DNA of 64,000 nt. Origin: Dirofilaria immitis. Its lineage: Eukaryota; Nematoda; Chromadorea; Rhabditida; Onchocercidae. Under the pieces are notes generated by a model that saw nothing but the letters and a program-made list of their open reading frames with translations, was not told the DNA's origin and searched no databases. The stretch is from contig JAKNDB010000088.1 of the NCBI GenBank assembly GCA_024305405.1, forward strand, positions 186,001-250,000. The letters are read 5' to 3'. How positions within the stretch are numbered: position 1 is the first letter of the stretch; each line of letters starts with the position of its first letter. The translations under genes were made by a program, and so were the position numbers. Below are positions 22,653 to 64,000 of the stretch, piece by piece.

Positions 22653-23241
22653 ACTTTTCTCTAAGTACGTGTAAATAATAAAGATACTTTTCTCTAAGTA
22701 CGTGTAAATAATAAAGATACTTTTCTGTAAGTACGTGTAAATAATAAAGATACTTTTCTCTAAATACGTGTAAATAATAAAGATACTTTTCTCTAAGTAC
22801 GTGTAAATAATAAAGATACTTTTCTCTAAGTACGTGTAAATAATAAAGATACTTTTCTCTAAGTACGTGTAAATAATAAAGATACTTTTCTCTAAGTACG
22901 TGTAAATAATAAAGATACTTTTCTCTAAGTACGTGTAAATAATAAAGATACTTTTCTCTAAGTACGTGTAAATAATAAAGATACTTTTCTCTAAGTACGT
23001 GTAAATAATAAAGATACTTTCTCTAAGTACGTGTAAATAATAAAGATACTTTTCTCTAAGTACGTGTAAATAATAAAGATACTTTTCTCTAAGTACGTGT
23101 AAATAATAAAGATACTTTTCTCTAAGTACGTGTAAATAATAAAGATACTTTTCTCTAAGTACGTGTAAATAATAAAGATACTTTTCTCTAAGTACGTGTA
23201 AATAATAAAGATACTTTTCTCTAAGTACGTGTAAATAATAA
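22653..23241. repeat. Minisatellite, 18 copies of 33 bp
   Basis: The unit ACTTTTCTCTAAGTACGTG followed by TAAATAATAAAGAT repeats 18 times with a 33-base period. Copies are nearly identical: one has CTGTAAG, one CTAAATACG and one (near 23016) lacks a T. Each unit includes TACGTGTAAATAA, which contains an ACGTG core and a GTAAATA forkhead-type core. If the NDUFS4-like exons to the right belong to a live gene, this array lies inside its next intron. Confidence 0.97.
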
Positions 23242-23506
23242 AAGTAATTGCAAATGAAATATTTTAGCTTAGTTTGATAAGAATCGTATCAAATCAATCA
23301 TTTTTCGTTATTTTATAAAAAAATTTAAGAAAAAAGTAACAAAAAAAAAAAATATTTTCAAGCAAAGGAAATTAATTTCGGAAAAAAAAAAGAAAAGAAA
23401 CTCACGTCGAATAAGTAATTTTAAAAAAAGTTGTATAATGCAATCGATGAATTCAATTTTTTTTTCCATCATTATAAGATGCTATAATGGCAACTCATTA
23501 ACTTAC

Positions 23507-56807: not shown

Positions 56808-57490
56808 TTGAAGAGAAACCACCGATAAAAGGCGTAGTAGACAGATCAAAATTACAACGGCCAAGATTATATGGAAGAGGATATTCGAACTGGGAATATG
56901 CCATTAGAGTTTGCTCGACAGCAAAACAGAGAGCAGTAATATCTTCTAACAGATTGCCACAGAAAAGCGAGAGTAATCGATTACCGAGCATTTTCTGTAA
57001 AACCAATGGAATGACAGATGTGATGTATATGCGACAGTGGACGAAAGACAAGGAAATTAAAGCGATCGGGACTCTGTGAATTATGTTTGAAGAAAGGCCA
57101 CTCGCAGCAAACTTGCGTGAAGAATTTAAAATGTTTTCATTGTGGATCGGGCAATAGTGCATTGTGTAACAAACGGGAAATGAAGTAAAATAAGAATTAC
57201 AAAGATGATGAAGGAGCAAATGGAAGCCCAAAGACAGTGGCGGCTACGGTTGCGTATAATGGCATTCGGGGAACATATATGATGTGCAAAAAAGTAAAGT
57301 TAGTCAATCCAGTGAAGGAGAAAAACCAGCAAATGCTTTAGTTTTGTTTGACACAGGAAGTGATTATAACTATGCCACAGAATCAATAACAAACAAATTG
57401 AAATTAAAACATACACGGTGCATTATTCATTTAATCTATATCTGTCGGAAAAAGAAACCGAAAGAGATGATCAGCAAACAGTAAAGAATT
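56808..57490 (+). mobile_element. BEL/Pao LTR retrotransposon fragment (gag C-terminus and protease)
   Basis: Broken coding sequence in more than one frame. A Gag-type zinc-knuckle segment reads CELCLKKGHSQQTC then LKCFHCGSGNSALCNKRE (about 57078-57186), the arrangement of the Pao/BEL nucleocapsid region. Downstream, ALVLFDTGSDYNYATESITN (about 57335-57395) is the retropepsin active-site region with DTG. Reverse transcriptase, RNase H and integrase are absent. The fragment ends next to the first rep-like segment, with a poly-A stretch at 57502-57516 between them. Confidence 0.8.
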
Positions 57491-57516
57491 CATCATAAAA
57501 ACTAAAAAAAAAAAAA

Positions 57517-58384
57517 TTTTCGATTACGAGAACTTCACAAGCGAATTACTTCATACAATTGGAAATGGACTAGAATATGGTATAACTGGCCACGAAACAT
57601 GTCCAACAACATTAAGGATTCATTACCAGTGTTATTTTAAATTTATCTCACCCGTACGTTTTTCAACACTTTCAGCAAAGCTTCCCTGAGGCAGTCACAT
57701 AGAAAAGCCAAAAGAACACCATATCAAAACTATCAGTACTGCAGCAAAGAAACCATAAAAGAAGAAATTGGTACCCGACCAAATCCACCAAACCGAAAAC
57801 GAAAACAACAAGAAGAACAATCAGCACTCCTAAAAAGGTATTGTTCCAATGAAATTAACTTACAACAAATGATAGAAGAAGACATTCTTTTGTAATGAAA
57901 TACTTACCCCGAATACAACAAATTAAATCTTATGTAACACCAGACCGTAACACCATAACCGAACTATACATTATAATAGGAGATCCAGGTATTGGAAAAC
58001 CACTTTCGCTACCAAACTAACGAAAAGTTACTTCATTAAAACAGCCAACACAGAAAAATGGTGGGACGGCTATGAAAACCAAGAACTAGTTATTCTCGAT
58101 GACTTTTACGGTTGGCTCTCACCAACTGAGCTATTCAACCTCGCAGACTCCAAACCTCATTACGTACAAATAAAAGGAGGTTTCGTCAAATTCAACAACA
58201 GCAAAGCCATCGTAATAACAAGCAACAAAATTCCGTAGCATTGGTGGAAACGACAAAACGTATTATATAAAATACGATATGAGAGCATTCGACAGAAGAG
58301 TAACTCTAATTTGGCATTGGACAATCACCAAAGAAAAATCATATTTTTGGATACAGCTTCAATTATAATTTAACATCTGATTAA
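57517..58384 (+). pseudogene. Endogenous circovirus-like Rep, segment 1 (N-terminally truncated)
   Basis: Rep of CRESS-DNA viruses nicks the origin with an HUH endonuclease domain and unwinds DNA with an SF3 helicase domain. This copy lacks the N-terminal motif 1 and has several stops and frame breaks. Recognised are the HUH motif 2 region (HYQCYF), the motif 3 region with a Tyr (YQYCSKE), a damaged Walker A near 57986, then WWDGYENQELVILDDFYGW (Walker B) and KAIVITSNKIP (motif C), ending at the TAA at 58382. It cannot encode an intact Rep. Amino-acid conservation against the other copies in the window exceeds what neutral drift in adjacent DNA would keep, so insertion is moderately recent or the copies were homogenised. 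Confidence 0.88.
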
Positions 58385-58620
58385 CCATTTACTAAGCTCT
58401 GCGGATTGTCCAGGCCTGGCTGCGTGGCTGCTCTGCGCACTTCAAAATAAAAGGCTACGTCTGGTCATAAAGTAACACATCCCATACTAAGCTATATCTT
58501 AAGCAATCATTCAGCCAATGCCGCCTTTGCTACGTGCATTTTTGTGTATGATTTCATTTGTGGCGGCAGTATTATTGGGGTTGTGTTGTGGGCTTCTCAT
58601 TTATTGTTGGTGATGAGCAG

Positions 58621-58893
58621 ATGGCGCGCGGTCGTTTCTTTCGCGCTCGTCGTAGTTTTCGGCGTTATTGGGTTCGTCGTCGTCGTGTACCTATTCCTAG
58701 TAGGGATATTGCTCATGGTACGGCGTATTTTGACTCACAAGGAGGATCGGGAAGATACAGTATGTTGGCGGGACGATTCAGTGTATCGGCGAACAGTCCA
58801 GTGAAGATTTATGCTGCTGTTGTGTATATTGCGACGGATGCTAATTGTGTTCCGGGTGTTGTTTGTGTTGTGTTTTTCCACTTCCTAAATTGA
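58621..58893 (+). pseudogene. Endogenous circovirus-like capsid, N-terminal part
   Basis: From the ATG at 58621 an Arg-rich leader (MARGRFFRARRSFRRYW) is followed by VPIPSRDIAHGTAYFDS and VKIYAAVVYIATDANCVPG. Arg-rich N-termini that bind DNA and target the nucleus are characteristic of circovirus and cyclovirus capsids. The viral similarity stops after about 85 codons and the frame closes at 58893. It lies downstream of, and on the same strand as, the rep segment; this is not the divergent arrangement of a normal circovirus and shows rearrangement. Confidence 0.8.
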
Positions 58894-59166
58894 AGATATA
58901 TGCCTTACACGATGATGGGTCATTGTTGAATATTTAGATTGTATAAAGGATATATTTCTTCCTTATACAAAAGTTCTCAGATTTATCAACTAATCTATTT
59001 TATTTATAAATCTCGCATAAAATAGTGAGAAAGCTTTCAAATCTCATACAATTGTGAGAATGCTGTTTTCGAGGAAATAATTTTCATTATTTACATACCT
59101 TATACGATGATAAGAAAATATGTAATACTTACATATATGACAATCGCTACCATGAGCATGAAAAAG
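58894..59166. other. AT-rich filler inside the viral array
   Basis: Composition returns to host-like AT-rich DNA with no similarity to the rep or cap segments. Imperfect repeats of CTTATACGATGAT/TTACACGATGATGG occur near 58905 and 59099. Confidence 0.5.
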
Positions 59167-59228
59167 CAAAGCCATCGTCATCACAAGGTAGTATTACCTT
59201 AAGCAGTCATAACCAGCTCTTGGTTTTC
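59167..59228. other. Junction of two rep snippets around a TAGTATTAC nonamer
   Basis: A 20-base piece of the rep motif-C region (SKAIVIT, + strand, 59167-59186) runs into AAGG-TAGTATTA-CCTT (59185-59200) and then into a rep piece in the opposite orientation (59213-59228, the NQELV region). TAGTATTAC is the circovirus-type origin nonamer. The stem is only 4 bp, far shorter than in circoviruses. Confidence 0.7.
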
Positions 59229-59241
59229 GTACGTCTTCAAC

Positions 59242-59563
59242 TTGGAATACTTTTCAATCGAAACCCTACAAACCACTGGAAATGGAATGGAATATGGAAT
59301 AGTAGGAGCAGAAACGTGTCCGACCACATCTCGAAAACACTATCAGTGCTATTTCAAATACATTTCGCCAGTACGATTCTCTACGCTTATAGCCAAACTA
59401 CCGCGAGGAAGTCATGTCGAAAAAGCGAAAGGTAGCCCATTTCAAAATTTTCAATACTGTAGCAAAGAAAATATAAGAGAAGAAATAGGAACTCGTCCCA
59501 CAGCACCTACACGAAAAAGAAAAGCAACCGAACAACAATCAGTTATGTTAAAAAATATTTGTT
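59242..59563 (+). pseudogene. Endogenous circovirus-like Rep, segment 2 (endonuclease domain)
   Basis: An open stretch with GNGMEYGIVGAETCPTT, HYQCYFKYISPVRFSTL, LPRGSHVEKAKGSPFQNF and YCSKENIREEIGTRP, covering HUH motifs 2 and 3 with the catalytic-type Tyr and the basic linker RKRKATEQQ. It lacks motif 1 and breaks off at 59563, where rep sequence resumes on the opposite strand. No helicase domain follows in this orientation. Confidence 0.85.
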
Positions 59564-59565
59564 AT

Positions 59566-59690
59566 CTCCGATCTATCTGGGGTTGTATACGATTTAATTT
59601 GTTGTATTTTTGTTAAGTTTTTCATTACGAATAGGTTATCTGTTTCTATCATGTCGTTTAAGGTTATTTCTGTTTTTACAATATTTTGAA
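59566..59690 (-). pseudogene. Rep linker fragment, inverted
   Basis: Reads on the minus strand as ITLNDMIETDNLFVMKNL followed by KSYTTPDRSEIT, matching the segment between the endonuclease and helicase domains in the other copies. At its upstream side (59691-59720) is a cap snippet (CTPGVV) in the same orientation, so two viral genes are joined at a breakpoint. Confidence 0.75.
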
Positions 59691-59828
59691 TACGTACAAC
59701 ACCAGGCGTACATTTCGCAGATCTTAGTAAAATGAAACAGGCTTGGTAGGGTACGAGTCGCAGGTTTATCAGACAGAGGGGCTATATCTTTGCAGTGCGC
59801 CATCAATTTGTTTGTTAATCAGAGGTGT

Positions 59829-59936
59829 TCACGCCGTACCATGCGCCACATCCCGACTAGGAACAGGAACGCGACGACGCCTATACCAATAACGGCGAAA
59901 AAACCGACGACTGCGAACGAAGCCACCACGCGCCAT
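59829..59936 (-). pseudogene. Capsid N-terminus, inverted, 35 codons
   Basis: ATG at 59936 on the minus strand opens an Arg-rich leader (MARGGFVRSRRFFRRYWY, then RVPVPSRDVAHGTA), then a TGA where the sequence jumps to the conserved rep 3' trailer. It is diverged from the cap at 60207 and is separated from it, head to head, by a 270-base region with the GC-rich hairpin. Confidence 0.8.
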
Positions 59937-59981
59937 CTACTCATCACACAACAGTGACTATAACAAAGATTCAAACGACCA

Positions 59982-59998
59982 TTATACGCGCCAAAACA
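59982..59998 (-). promoter_or_regulatory. Promoter-like block of the leftward cap fragment
   Basis: On the minus strand TTTTGGCGCGTATAAT joins an E2F-type site (TTTGGCGC) to a TATA-like box about 45 bases before the cap ATG at 59936. A TGATGTCA motif lies just upstream. The same block order is seen before the rightward cap. Confidence 0.5.
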
Positions 59999-60026
59999 AT
60001 GACATCACCTACAAAAACGTACGTAA

Positions 60027-60094
60027 CTTGGGCCGGCACGGCCGCATGATTGAAAATTATTCCTAGAGGAATCGTGCAGCCGTGCCGGCCCAAG
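60027..60094. other. GC-rich hairpin, 25-bp arms, 18-nt loop (copy 1)
   Basis: Arms begin CTTGGGCCGGCACGGC and close on its complement, with two mismatches in 25 pairs; the loop is GAAAATTATTCCTAGAGG. It is strikingly GC-rich in an AT-rich genome and sits between two divergent cap starts, the position where a circovirus carries its origin stem-loop. The loop does not hold a canonical nonamer. Confidence 0.92.
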
Positions 60095-60130
60095 AATCGT
60101 GCATTTTGTAAATGATGTTATGTATGATGT

Positions 60131-60162
60131 CATGTTGATGATGTCATTTTGGCGCGTATATA
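60131..60162 (+). promoter_or_regulatory. Promoter-like block of the rightward cap
   Basis: TGATGTCA motifs are followed by TTTTGGCGCG (60147-60156, E2F-type) running directly into TATATA (60157-60162), 45 bases before the cap ATG at 60207. Spacing of the TATA box to the start fits a polymerase II promoter with a very short leader. Confidence 0.55.
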
Positions 60163-60206
60163 TGCTGCCTGCAACATTTTTTTAGTCATTTGTGTGTGAT
60201 GTGTAG

Positions 60207-60620
60207 ATGGAGCGCGGTTGTTTCGTCCGTTATCGTCGCTATTTTCGCCGTTATTGGGCTCGTCGTAGTCGTTTGCCTGTGCCTAATCAGGATGTGGCGC
60301 ATGGTACGGCGTGCTTTGATTTTCAAGGAGGACCGGGTCGATACAGTATGTTGGCAGAGCGATTCGGTATACCGGCGAACTGTTCAGTGAAAATTTATGC
60401 GGCTGTTGTTTATATAGCATCTGATGCGAATTGTACACCTGGTGTTGTGCGTGTGCAATTTGGAGGCGGAAGTGAAAAATGTGATGTTTCTGTGTCACGT
60501 ATAACTTATATAACGGCGGGTCATGTACGAAGGTTTTGGCTGCGTGCTCCGTATGGAGCTGATTTTCATGTTTATCATCACGAAAACGTAAAGCAACCGA
60601 AGAACAATCAATTATGTTAA
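60207..60620 (+). pseudogene. Circovirus-like capsid, best-preserved copy (C-terminally truncated)
   Basis: Open from the ATG at 60207. An Arg-rich leader (MERGCFVRYRRYFRRYW) precedes VPNQDVAHGTACFDFQ, RYSMLAERFGIPANC, VKIYAAVVYIASDANC and VRRFWLRAPYGADFHVYHH. Around codon 126 the cap sequence ends abruptly inside what is rep linker DNA (read in the wrong frame), closing at 60620. Known circovirus capsids are about 200-240 residues, so roughly the C-terminal 40% is missing. The remaining frame has no stop, and the inverted copy at 61564-61977 encodes an almost identical product, which argues for a recent duplication. Confidence 0.85.
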
Positions 60621-61152
60621 AAAAATACTGCAACAACGAAATAACTATCAACGACATGATAGAAAAAGACAACTTATTCGTCATGAAAACCTTACAAAAA
60701 TACAACAAATCAAATCATATACAACACCTGACAGATCGGAAATAATAGAATCTATCTGCTATTAGGAGATCCAGGAATAGGTAAAACAACATTTGCCACC
60801 AAATTATCAAAAACTTCTACATAAAAGCAGCAAATACCGAAAAATGGTGGGACGGATATGAAAACCAAGAGCTGGTTATCCTCGATGACTTCTACGGGTG
60901 GCTATACCCGCTGAACTGTTCAACCTCGCAGATTCAAAGCCCGACTACGTCCAAATAATAGGAGGCTTTGTCAAATTCACCAGCAAAGCAATCGTGATAG
61001 CCAGCAATAAAATACCCGAACAATGGTGGAAAAAACTAACAGTACTAAAATACGATATGCGCGCATTCGACGGAAGAGTAACTTCCACCTGGCGACGAAC
61101 AAGCGATATTGAAGATTCTTATTTCGGATACAAATTCGATCTAAACTTCTGA
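60583..61152 (+). pseudogene. Rep segment 3: linker and helicase domain
   Basis: Starts inside the linker (KRKATEEQS), then ITINDMIEKDNLFVMKTL, an intact-looking Walker A (GDPGIGKTTFATKL), KWWDGYENQELVILDDFYG, FNLADSKPDYVQI, and the C-terminus DMRAFDGRVTSTWRRT to the TGA at 61150. The endonuclease domain is missing and the frame is interrupted at least between the linker and Walker A, after Walker A and after Walker B. It continues directly from the truncated cap on the same strand. Confidence 0.87.
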
Positions 61153-61307
61153 TTAACAAACAATCTGACGGCCCACTGCAAAGATATAGCCCTCTGTCTG
61201 ATCAGCCCGTGACCCTACCCTACTAAGCCTGTTTCATTGTTACTTGTCTTTTTCATTGTTACTTTGATTCCACTGTTAATAACACATTGTATATAACACA
61301 CGTGTAG
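61153..61307 (+). other. Rep 3' trailer and spacer of the inverted repeat
   Basis: Contains ACTGCAAAGATATAGCCC and TCTGTCTGATCAGCCCGT, a tail found after rep at three places (61168 +, 63768 +, 59765 on the minus strand). This conserved non-coding tail belongs to the viral unit. The inverted copy of the array begins at 61308. Confidence 0.75.
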
Positions 61308-61563
61308 CCAGCTCTTGGTTTTCACATCCGTCCCACCATTTTTCGGTATTTGCTGCTTTTATGTAGAAGTTTTTGATAATTTGGTGGCAAATGTTGTTTT
61401 ACCTATTCCTGGATCTCCTAATAGCAGATAGATTCTATTATTTCCGATCTGTCAGGTGTTGTATATCATTTGATTTGTTGTATTTTTGTAAGGTTTTTCA
61501 TGACGAATAAGTTGTCTTTTTCTATCATGTCGTTGATAGTTATTTCGTTGTTGCAGTATTTTT
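61308..61563 (-). pseudogene. Rep linker to Walker B fragment, inverted
   Basis: Reverse-complement copy of 60598-60875, from the linker through Walker A to the NQEL segment, nearly identical to its partner. It stops at CCAGCTCTTGG, the same short motif at which the inverted snippet at 59213 begins. Confidence 0.85.
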
Positions 61564-61977
61564 TTAACATAATTGATTGTTCTTCGGTTGCTTTACGTTT
61601 TCATGATGATGAACATGAAAATCAGCTCCATACGGAGCACGCAGCCAAAACCTTCGTACATAACCCGCCGTTATATAAGTTATACGTGACACAGAAACAT
61701 CACATTTTTCACTTCCGCCTCCAAATTGCACACGCACAACACCAGGTGTACAATTCGCATCAGATGCTATATAAACAACAGCCGCATAAATTTTCACTGA
61801 ACAGTTCGCCGGTATACCGAATCGCTCTGCCAACATACTGTATCGACCCGGTCCTCCTTGAAAATCAAAGCACGCCGTACCATGCGCCACATTCTGATTA
61901 GGCACAGGCAAACGACGACGACGAGCCCAATAACGGCGAAAATAGCGACGATAACGGACGAAACAACCGCGCGCCAT
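61564..61977 (-). pseudogene. Circovirus-like capsid, inverted copy of 60207-60620
   Basis: Same truncated 126-codon cap part and same join to rep linker DNA as the plus-strand copy; start MARGCFVRYRRYF. Only a handful of residue differences from its partner are visible. The shared junction proves that the cap-rep joining happened before the inverted duplication. Its upstream promoter has been separated from the ATG by a 482-base insertion (61981-62462). Confidence 0.87.
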
Positions 61978-61980
61978 CTA

Positions 61981-62462
61981 TCGCGTCTTTATTGGGTGTG
62001 AGCTGACGTCGAGGGGACCAAATGTCACCAGTGTTGGGTATTGAGTAGGGTGTAGTGGAGCTGTATTGAGAGCACACCGTGAAACCGAAACGTTTATTAC
62101 TGATTGTATGGTGATAATAATAATCTTGATGATGATCACTCGTGGTTTATATCTTCCCAGAAGTGAGAGTGGTTAATTCTAGCACTGGAAACATACCGGA
62201 TATGGAGGAAACATTACAGTAACATTAAAAGGGGAGATTAGCGTGGGAAAATAAGCGTTTAAACAAAAGGATGTAGATTGGTTAGATAACAACAAAAACG
62301 TGTGAAAAACAATTTTAAGGAATGTGGATATGACTGGGATGATTCATAGTTTCATGAGCATTAATTTACAGTGAGTAATCTATTTGCTTATTTGTTTACA
62401 ATAAGAAATTTGTTTAATTATGTAATTGTATGTTGGAGTTTCGCGAATCAGCGTTCGCGACA
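61981..62462. mobile_element. LTR retrotransposon 3' fragment inserted between promoter and cap
   Basis: The insertion is bounded by direct repeats CCATCTA (61974-61980 and 62463-62469), while the uninterrupted partner arm has one copy. The last 440 bases (62023-62462) begin TGTCACC and end GCGACA, i.e. TG..CA with a TGTC/GACA inverted end, as an LTR should. Directly before it is a purine-rich tract (GAGGGGACCAAA) as expected for a polypurine tract. About 42 bases of internal sequence remain. BEL/Pao origin is likely given the fragment at 56808, but not shown. Confidence 0.65.
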
Positions 62463-62578
62463 CCATCTACACATCACACACAAATGACTAAAAAATATTG
62501 CAAGCAGCATATATACGCGCCAAAATGACATCATCAACATGACATCATACATAACATCATTTACAAAAATGCACGATT

Positions 62579-62646
62579 CTTGGGCCGGCACGGCTGCATG
62601 ATTCCTCTAGGAATAATTTTCAATCATGCGGCCGTGCCGGCCCAAG
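62579..62646. other. GC-rich hairpin, 25-bp arms, 18-nt loop (copy 2)
   Basis: Reverse-complement copy of the hairpin at 60027-60094, with only one mismatch in 25 pairs and loop CCTCTAGGAATAATTTTC. Here it lies between the promoter of the inverted cap and the promoter-like block (TTTTGGCGCGTATAATGG, about 62677-62694) of the cap fragment at 62737. Confidence 0.92.
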
Positions 62647-62736
62647 TTACGTACGTTTTTGTAGGTGATGTCATTGTTTTGGCGCGTATAATGGTCGTTT
62701 GAATCTTTGTTATAGTCACTGTTGTGTGATGAGTAG

Positions 62737-62856
62737 ATAGCGCGTAGTGGCTTCGTTCGCAGTCGTCGGTTTTTTCGCCGTTATTGGCGTAAGCGTCGTG
62801 GTTTACCTGTTCCTAGTAGGGATGTGGCGCATGGTACGGCGTGTTTTGACCTGCAC
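62737..62856 (+). pseudogene. Capsid N-terminus with lost start codon
   Basis: Forty codons of the Arg-rich cap leader (SRRFFRRYW, then LPVPSRDVAHGTACFD), partner of 59829-59936 in the inverted repeat. The expected ATG reads ATA and the segment ends where a rep 5' region begins. Confidence 0.78.
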
Positions 62857-62886
62857 ATAAAAACACATTCAAACCAAACCCACAAA

Positions 62887-63711
62887 ATGTCTAGCCGCGC
62901 CAAATGTTGGACTGCAACAGTTTTCAATCTCGACTTCTATGGATCTTGTTCAATCAATAGGAAATGGTTTAGAATATGGAATTATTGGCGAAGAAACATG
63001 CCCTTCAACAGGAAGAAAACATTACCAATGCTACTTCAATACAATTCCCCAGTACGATTTTCAACTCTAACGGCAAAACTACCAAGAGGAACGCACATAG
63101 AAAAAGCGAAAGGTACGCCTTACCAAAACTTTCAATATTGTAGTAAAGAAAATATAAAAGAAGAAACAGGAACAAGACCCACACCCCTCAAGAAAAAGAA
63201 AAGGAACAGAAGAACAATCCATTCTACTAAAAAAATATTGTAACAACGAAATAACACTAAATGATATGATAGAATCGGACAATATATTCGTAATGAGGAA
63301 CCTAACAAAATTCAACAAATAAAATCCTACACCACACCAGACAGGTCCGAAATAACCGAACTTATTACTCTGTGATCCAGGAATAGGTAAAACAACATTC
63401 GCAACTAAACTATCCAAAAATTTTTTCATTAAAACTGCTAATTCTACGGATGGCTCTCCTCGCCGAACTCTTCAGTCTCGCAGACTCGAAACCGCACTGT
63501 GTAAATAAAAGGCGGATTCGTCGAATTCAACAGCAAGGCGATTGTCATAACCAGTAACAAGATACCTGAGCACTGGTGGAAACGATCGACCGTATTCAAG
63601 TACGACATGCGAGCGTTTGACAGAAGAGCAACTTACACCTGGCGACGAACTGACACAATCGACGAAGCTTACTTCGGACACAAATTTGACTTCCAACTTA
63701 CTTCCGACTAA
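62887..63711 (+). pseudogene. Rep segment 4, the only copy with an N-terminus
   Basis: The ATG at 62887 starts MSSRAKCWTATVFNLDFYGS, a plausible HUH motif 1 region, preceded by a CATAAAAACACATTC leader unlike the cap promoters. Motif 3 (FQYCSKENIKEETGTRP) and Walker A (DPGIGKTTFATKL) follow in changing frames. About 20 residues are deleted after FIKTANS, removing Walker B. The C-terminal part (FNSKAIVITSNKIPEHWW, then DAYFGHKF-like EAYFGHKFDFQL) reaches a TAA at 63709. The conserved rep 3' trailer follows. Non-functional because of the frame breaks and the helicase deletion. Confidence 0.88.
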
Positions 63712-63936
63712 CAACCTACTAAGCTCCGCGTGTTGTCTAGGCAAAAGGTGTGCTAGCTCTGGCGCACTGCAAGATATAGCCCCTCCGTCTGATCAGCCCG
63801 TAACCACCGAACCTACTAAGCATATTGACTCTTTTGTGTTTCTTTTATATTGTTACTATGTACATAACACATGTTCATTTAACAAAACTTTTTATTGAAC
63901 CAACGAGTACACACAAAAAAACAAAACAAAAACAAA

Positions 63937-64000
63937 TTAATTAATAACATCAGGTTGACGTAAATAATAAACAGTAGCAGAAACCTGCAATTTACCACCT
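63937..64000 (-). pseudogene. Capsid C-terminus at the window edge
   Basis: On the minus strand the last 20 codons read GGKLQVSATVYYLRQPDVIN and a TAA at 63939-63937. A short beta-strand-rich tail of this kind ends circovirus capsids, and its position, tail to tail with the rep ending at 63711 and 225 bases away, is the normal circovirus layout. The rest of this cap lies outside the window, so its completeness is unknown. Confidence 0.6.

What the first reader, a model, noticed from the sequence alone, without database searches (positions are those of the whole stretch)
57517..64000. Rearranged endogenous circovirus-like array in a nematode genome
At least four Rep-derived and six Cap-derived segments lie within 6.5 kb in both orientations, with conserved Walker A, Walker B, motif C and YCSKE signatures and an Arg-rich capsid leader. 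Circovirus-like elements are well known from vertebrate and some invertebrate genomes; a multi-copy, head-to-head amplified array in a nematode is unusual. The HUH motif 2 variant (HYQCYF rather than the common HLQG form) suggests a divergent lineage. Seen: motifs and orientations. Inferred: nematode host and integration.
Basis: partly seen in the sequence, partly recalled or inferred. Interest (0 to 1): 0.88.

Follow-up and report, generated by a model that had tools for sequence, protein, structure and literature searches.

The report
Fossil circovirus pile-up in heartworm genome
The dog heartworm genome holds a 10-kilobase scrapyard of broken genes from several distinct, extinct or unknown circovirus-like viruses, including what looks like their coat-protein gene, which suggests that filarial worms have been infected repeatedly by a virus family not yet described.

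Summary
In detail: window 57516-64000 contains Rep and Cap-like pieces in both orientations, and the array runs on to about C18:253,934 (about 10.4 kb). The host is the filarial nematode Dirofilaria immitis. Rep is circovirus-type by Pfam and by solved-structure sequences. The Cap-like gene matches no virus found here; its Arg-rich start, convergent place beside Rep and purifying selection suggest a capsid, but no fold could be shown. 'In a nematode' is not new: Rep fossils in filariae were reported in 2011. 'Amplified array' is mostly wrong: synonymous divergence between Rep pieces is near saturation while proteins are conserved, so at least four, probably five, viral lineages lie in one locus. 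Only a long inverted repeat (59830-60878 / 61305-62843; 22 mismatches in 1,053 sites) is clearly recent local duplication in the window. BEL/Pao pieces are woven in. No intact copy was seen in the stretches examined. What may be new is a Cap-like family across filariae and several lineages at one site; neither showed in the listings of ten literature searches. Unknown: capsid fold, whether capture was serial or at once, any host function.

The parts
56809..57415 (+). left flank: broken retrotransposon fragment (gag zinc knuckle and protease, probably BEL/Pao), 71-86% like other genomic copies
   Evidence: 18 matches besides itself; best ones end at query 812-816; DUF1758 at 16.7 bits, below its cut-off of 22; knuckle seen by eye
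57516..58388 (+). Rep copy 1, HUH and helicase regions, lacks about the first 11 codons, in-frame stop and frameshifts inside
   Evidence: a stop in the HUH row
58389..58496 (+). Rep 3' intergenic region
   Evidence: matches L036 and the Cap 3' side of L035
58506..58620 (+). Cap upstream region
   Evidence: 58506-58869 matches L033:3872-4231
58621..58869 (+). Cap-like copy (nt 1-248)
59233..59559 (+). Rep copy 2, HUH domain with H-x-Q and YCSKE motifs
   Evidence: PF02407 36.2 bits
59562..59687 (-). Rep linker piece, inverted
59686..59719 (-). Cap scrap (34 nt) joined in sense to the Rep piece
59726..59826 (-). Rep 3' intergenic region, inverted
   Evidence: matches 61145-61244
59830..60878 (.). 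left arm of the long inverted repeat; holds Cap start (-), stem-loop, Cap (+), part of Rep (+)
   Evidence: 22 mismatches in 1,053 aligned sites and 5 gap columns against the right arm, LTR left out
59830..59936 (-). Cap-like N-terminal piece
   Evidence: 59830-59948 is 98.3% like L033:1203-1321
60027..60094 (.). GC-rich stem-loop at a head-to-head joint of two Cap upstream regions; candidate origin
   Evidence: DNA fold z -9.05 (+ strand), 0 of 200 shuffles as stable; matches only on C18
60207..60577 (+). Cap-like copy (about 124 codons, Arg-rich start), cut short by the join to Rep
60578..61157 (+). Rep copy 3, linker and helicase
   Evidence: PDB match 8xms at 8.3e-4
61158..61266 (+). Rep 3' intergenic region
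61305..62843 (.). right arm of the long inverted repeat, split by the LTR
61305..61606 (-). inverted duplicate of part of Rep copy 3
61607..61977 (-). Cap-like copy, inverted duplicate of 60207-60577 (5 nonsynonymous, 0 synonymous differences in 124 codons)
61979..62462 (-). solo LTR of a BEL/Pao element, 5-bp target duplication CCATC
   Evidence: 40 matches scored of 54 candidates, own copy included; kin with both LTRs and Pao genes
62579..62646 (.). second copy of the stem-loop
   Evidence: DNA fold z -11.75
62737..62855 (+). Cap-like N-terminal piece
62887..63713 (+). Rep copy 4, frameshifted; end approximate
63714..63936 (+). intergenic region between convergent Rep and Cap
63942..64000 (-). 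Cap-like C-terminal part, continues beyond the window to C18:250,204

Best explanation
This is a locus of endogenous circovirus-like (CRESS DNA virus) fossils in Dirofilaria immitis. DNA from at least four, probably five, related but clearly distinct viral lineages ended up within about 10 kb. The lineages had a circovirus-type Rep and, as far as the pieces show, a short Arg-rich Cap-like gene with its 3' end facing that of Rep. Shown: the homology, the mosaic, the near-saturated synonymous divergence under purifying selection, and later local events (one inverted duplication, then a BEL/Pao solo LTR; and a BEL/Pao gag slice inside a Cap piece). Inferred: viral DNA, perhaps linearised at its stem-loop origin, was joined to host DNA and to other viral DNA by end joining or template switching. 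My guess for the repeated use of the site is 45% homology with copies already there, 35% capture of a mixed infection at once, 20% a hotspot. The copies seen are broken, and I expect no protein function.
For: Rep identity. Host: SL1 58 exact hits, control 0; D. immitis names on contigs of the same length. Second assembly. Multi-lineage: in the linker-helicase piece 30 of 36 pairs of nine copies have dS over 1 or saturated, 4 lie at 0.64-0.99, and the two inverted-duplicate pairs are at 0.07 and 0.11; dN/dS is at most 0.36 in the 34 others. In the HUH piece all 15 pairs of six copies, and in the C-terminal helicase piece all 10 pairs with 30 or more shared codons, have dS over 1. Cap: 37 of 42 pairs with 30 or more shared codons (66 pairs possible) have dN/dS 0.10-0.47. 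Seven C18 Cap copies as one clade rejected, p-AU 0.004. Convergent Rep/Cap at two loci, C18 and C61. LTR and gag.
Against: Five C18 Rep pieces as one clade is not rejected (p-AU 0.33). Cap synonymous divergence is lower than that of Rep, unexplained. Three Cap pairs, all with the 36-codon piece at 62743, show dN/dS 0.66-0.91. No virus relative was confirmed in 4 viral-contig scans (one search did not run) and none listed in 3 protein searches. Cap fold not shown. No tree with public viral Reps was built. No reads were available.
Confidence: 0.78

Rival explanations
1. One viral integration that was then amplified and rearranged locally.
For: Inverted copies at 98% and 96%; a 95% inverted pair on C61; C18 Rep clade not rejected.
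Against: 30 of 36 Rep pairs have dS over 1 or saturated with low dN, which drifting pseudogenes would not give; C18 Cap clade rejected.
Confidence: 0.08
2. A host-resident Rep element or domesticated gene family that diversified inside filarial genomes under selection, rather than repeated infection.
For: Copies at three other places, C10 twice and C61; Cap relatives in Onchocerca and Brugia; purifying selection; transposons derived from ssDNA viruses are known (PMC3198968, passages).
Against: No Rep-bearing frame over 188 aa among the frames listed for the window and L033-L037; I noticed no terminal repeats or target duplications around viral units, but did not search for them systematically; a Cap-like gene and a candidate origin point to a virus.
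Confidence: 0.1
3. Single capture of a mixed or concatenated infection rather than serial captures at one place (a sub-case of the best explanation; its odds overlap with it).
For: Interleaved Rep and Cap pieces with tight joins; head-to-head joint at the stem-loop between two Cap upstream regions.
Against: A BEL/Pao gag slice 94-98% like 21 other long copies lies between a Cap and a Rep piece, so at least one join is recent.
Confidence: 0.35
4. Assembly chimera or contamination.
For: None found; no reads were available.
Against: Second assembly with the same ORFs; host genes, retroelements and decayed frames in the same contig; further copies on C10 and C61.
Confidence: 0.02

Closest known systems
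Endogenous circovirus-like Rep sequences in filarial nematodes (Liu et al. 2011, PMC3198968)
   Same: Same host group (Brugia malayi 1, Loa loa 10, Wuchereria 3, Onchocerca volvulus 5) and the same kind of Rep fossil; the paper allows both duplication and independent integration.
   Different: Dirofilaria is not in its Table 1, and its three capsid entries are from tobacco and sloth; no locus with several lineages in the parts read.
Endogenous circoviral elements of invertebrates (Dennis et al. 2018, PMC6069186)
   Same: Rep fossils in many invertebrates, grouping with cycloviruses or divergent CRESS viruses.
   Different: 93 invertebrate sequences; all new ones rep, no new cap; the authors note that unrelated cap genes may not be recognised. 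Here a Cap-like gene lies beside Rep.
Tandem complete circovirus genomes in cyprinid fish (Dennis et al. 2019, PMC6372831)
   Same: Several copies in one locus.
   Different: There complete genomes in tandem; here broken pieces of several lineages in both orientations.
Nodavirus element captured by a BEL/Pao element in Bursaphelenchus (Cotton et al. 2016, PMC5177903)
   Same: Nematode viral fossil tied to BEL/Pao.
   Different: There the viral gene lies between two LTRs; here no LTR pair encloses viral genes in the stretch read.

Membership tests
Circovirus-type CRESS DNA virus (endogenous) | HUH Rep domain with motifs I-III | tested here: met
   PF02407 above cut-off in the window, C10 and C61; Rep chains in PDB (that 2hw0 and 7lar are circovirus is recalled)
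Circovirus-type CRESS DNA virus (endogenous) | superfamily 3 helicase with Walker A, B and motif C | tested here: met
   PF00910 46 bits in the C61 copy; 7lar 1.1e-21; motifs in window copies
Circovirus-type CRESS DNA virus (endogenous) | Cap with basic N-terminus and jelly-roll fold | tested here: inconclusive
   Arg-rich start present; AlphaFold pLDDT 35.3 and 42.6; no fold match at E 0.001
Circovirus-type CRESS DNA virus (endogenous) | ambisense Rep and Cap with origin between 5' ends | tested here: inconclusive
   convergent Rep/Cap at C18 and C61; stem-loop upstream of Cap; none of the six Rep copies whose upstream was printed shows it there
Circovirus-type CRESS DNA virus (endogenous) | nonanucleotide NANTATTAC (recalled) in the loop | tested here: not met
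   no exact match in the stem-loop regions, one-mismatch matches only; 3 exact and 49 with at most one mismatch in 20,868 positions of the array; about 3 exact expected by my own arithmetic from base composition
Circovirus-type CRESS DNA virus (endogenous) | Rep falls inside Circovirus or Cyclovirus in a tree | not tested
   no public viral Rep could be drawn with the scans made
Endogenous viral element | embedded in host chromosome | tested here: met
   host Pfam domains in the window, dispersed LTR in the array, second assembly; no reads seen
BEL/Pao-captured viral gene | viral gene between two LTRs of one element | tested here: not met
   one solo LTR; gag slice without LTR

The most novel reading that the evidence does not exclude
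The locus is a capture site that has taken up successive lineages of a filaria-specific circovirid family with its own, unrecognised capsid family, perhaps still circulating. Its 1-kb inverted repeat would, if transcribed, give double-stranded RNA against that virus: a heritable antiviral memory in a worm for which I found no report of a circovirus.
Probability: 0.08. Interest if true: 0.85.

Novelty: new variant of a known kind. Interest (0 to 1): 0.5.

Why it matters
It indicates repeated infection of filarial worms by a circovirus-like family of which no living member was found here, and it gives that family a candidate coat-protein gene. One earlier survey allowed that such genes could go unrecognised (PMC6069186). 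The Cap profile finds relatives in Onchocerca and Brugia, so the screen can be repeated across filariae. Several lineages in one 10-kb locus raise a testable question: why did viral DNA land there more than once, and does the worm use it?

Tried and rejected
Simple amplification: rejected for most copies by dS. Assembly artefact: unlikely. Viral relatives in IMG/VR: scans with Rep HUH, Cap, Rep helicase and the Rep alignment gave 18, 4, 1 and 79 pattern stretches and no confirmed relative; a fifth ended in an error for lack of conserved columns. Cap structure: two AlphaFold jobs, pLDDT 35.3 and 42.6. Foldseek on the second gave 0 matches at E 0.001 in both libraries; the immunoglobulin-like PDB list is not meaningful at that confidence. 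Exact circovirus nonanucleotides in the array, one of them near 59,190, are no more than chance. Antisense ORFs over Cap: in five Cap pieces no frame was unusually open against 1,000 codon shuffles each. The C26 PF02407 match (26.5 bits, 3 stops) aligned with no Rep piece, and its translation shows no Rep motifs: set aside. In one search the HUH row 66414 is an out-of-frame match over copy 66295; its six pairs were dropped from the counts. Four Cap-Rep coding joins (59686, 60577, 62855 with 31 nt between, and 67095 in window-like numbering) are sense to sense, as are the gag joins. That would fit RNA template switching, but four of four is not significant, so I do not claim it.
Full report
What is there. 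The window is C18:186001-250000 of an 86.7-Mb, 65-contig genome. It is a nematode: the 22-nt SL1 leader occurs 58 times exactly and its reversed control 0 times. It is Dirofilaria immitis: protein records under that name lie on contigs of 3,687,191 and 4,383,111 bp, the lengths of C18 and C61. From 57516 the GC content is 35-42% per kilobase, against 26-32% in the nine kilobases before, and circovirus-like pieces begin. They end near C18:253,934, so the array is about 10.4 kb and the window cuts it.

Rep. Window 59203-59613 passes the PF02407 cut-off (36.2 bits against 26). In the whole genome that family rings at four places: C10, C18 and C61 without stops, and C26 with three stops; the last is doubtful. 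The C61 helicase piece matches PF00910 (46 bits). Profiles from the pieces (A2 also holds P0010 from an unnamed source) find Rep chains: HUH part 2hw0 at 2.9e-7, helicase part 7lar at 1.1e-21. I recall 2hw0 and 7lar as porcine circovirus 2; the tool gives only molecule names. Four viral-contig scans confirmed no relative of Rep or Cap.

The Cap-like gene. The Arg-rich ORFs at 60207 and 61977 have no Pfam match; the 61977 ORF has none among PDB sequences or IMG/VR contigs. In the whole genome 12 matches to the 60207 ORF were scored: 9 on C18, 1 on C10 and 2 on C61. A profile search gave 13 proteins at E up to 1 among 5,400 candidates (12 of them under 1e-16): D. immitis, Onchocerca ochengi, O. 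flexuosa, Brugia pahangi and one unnamed source, none labelled as from a virus. Database labels on them ('Capsid protein', 'Usherin' and so on) look automatic, and I do not use them as evidence. The evidence for a capsid is indirect: the basic N-terminus, the convergent position beside Rep at two loci, and dN/dS of 0.10-0.47 in 37 of the 42 pairs that share 30 or more codons. Of the other five pairs, three (all with the 36-codon piece at 62743) are 0.66-0.91 and two are duplicates with no synonymous change. The fold was not obtained.

How many viruses. Codon comparison of the linker-helicase piece in nine copies gave 36 pairs. Thirty have dS above 1 or saturated, four lie between 0.64 and 0.99, and two (the inverted duplicates 60620/61383 and C61 5198/5890) are at 0.07 and 0.11. 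dN/dS outside the duplicates is at most 0.36. The HUH piece (15 pairs of six copies) and the C-terminal piece (10 pairs) agree: every dS is above 1. Pseudogenes that drift after local copying would not look like this. The differences arose while the genes were working, that is, in the viruses (or in active elements). Copies 57516, 60578, 62887 and 66294 (in L033) are four lineages; the 59562-59687 piece, 40 codons, is probably a fifth. The HUH piece at 59233 differs from the other three C18 HUH copies but does not overlap copy 60578. Trees: seven C18 Cap copies as one clade are rejected (p-AU 0.004); five C18 Rep pieces as one clade are not (p-AU 0.33).

Local events. Arms 59830-60878 and 61305-62843 form an inverted repeat with 22 mismatches in 1,053 aligned sites, plus 5 gap columns. 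At a C. elegans-like rate of 2.7e-9 per site per generation (recalled) that is about four million generations, a rough guide only. The right arm carries a solo LTR (61979-62462, duplication CCATC). The other arm shows the unfilled site, so the LTR most likely came later. The LTR has 40 scored matches, its own included, and a kin element on C15 with two LTRs has Pao peptidase, reverse transcriptase and integrase. Beyond the window a BEL/Pao gag slice without LTRs lies inside a Cap piece (L033:1422-2709), 94-98% like 21 other copies of 990 nt or more. The left flank is probably another such fragment.

Origin. A GC-rich stem-loop (60027-60094, copy 62579-62646) sits at the centre of a head-to-head joint of two Cap upstream regions. 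Its DNA folding z-scores are -8.7 to -11.8, but a head-to-head joint is palindromic anyway, so this alone does not prove an origin. The whole-genome search found it only on C18. Its place suits an origin, and joining at a nicked origin would explain the joint. The circovirus nonanucleotide is not there in exact form, and no Rep copy has the stem-loop upstream; Rep homology between copies starts at or near the start codon. So the origin is an inference.

State of the copies. No Rep-bearing frame above 188 aa is among the frames listed for the window (100 aa or more) and L033-L037 (80 aa or more). I expect no working virus protein. A hairpin RNA from the inverted repeat is possible and untested.

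Prior work. Liu et al. 2011 (section 6 and passages) lists Rep fossils in four filariae and no nematode capsid. Dennis et al. 2018 (passages and section 6) found only rep among its new sequences. Dennis et al. 2019 (passages) reports tandem genomes in fish. Cotton et al. 2016 (outline and results) describes a BEL/Pao-captured nodavirus gene. Metegnier et al. 2015, Quek et al. 2024 and the tapeworm circovirid paper PMC12197738 were seen in passages. The listings of ten searches showed no report of a nematode Cap fossil or of Dirofilaria circovirus fossils. Several listings were capped (12 to 25 shown of 48 to 1,691), seven papers were opened, and the library lacks most subscription papers.

Verdict. 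A real and well-supported viral fossil locus of a known kind, with two features that look new: a filarial Cap-like family and several lineages in one place.

Noticed in passing
L033:1422-2709 (C18:250,921-252,208): A slice of BEL/Pao gag (PF03564) without LTRs lies inside a Cap piece and before a Rep piece, all in sense; it is 94-98% like 21 other copies of 990 nt or more.
   Followed up: partly
G000:C13:1458577-1475216: 40 tandem SL1 units at about 420-bp spacing at the end of a contig.
   Followed up: no
P0012 (Onchocerca flexuosa, 1,786-bp contig): An open Cap-like frame on a contig of about the size of a circovirus genome; fossil or circulating virus cannot be told here.
   Followed up: no
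P0003 and P0010 (unnamed source, contigs of 14,304 and 20,977 bp): Cap-like and Rep relatives at 72% and 64% identity in records with no organism shown.
   Followed up: no
window 22653-23242: A 33-bp minisatellite of 17.9 units, 98% matches, open in two reading frames.
   Followed up: no
Cap versus Rep copies, C18, C10, C61: Synonymous divergence of Cap (mostly 0.3-1.4) is lower than that of Rep (mostly over 1); an antisense gene is not supported.
   Followed up: partly
L036:5100-6267 (C61): A separate inverted duplication of Rep, 95% over 363 nt, shows that head-to-head duplication happened at a second locus.
   Followed up: partly
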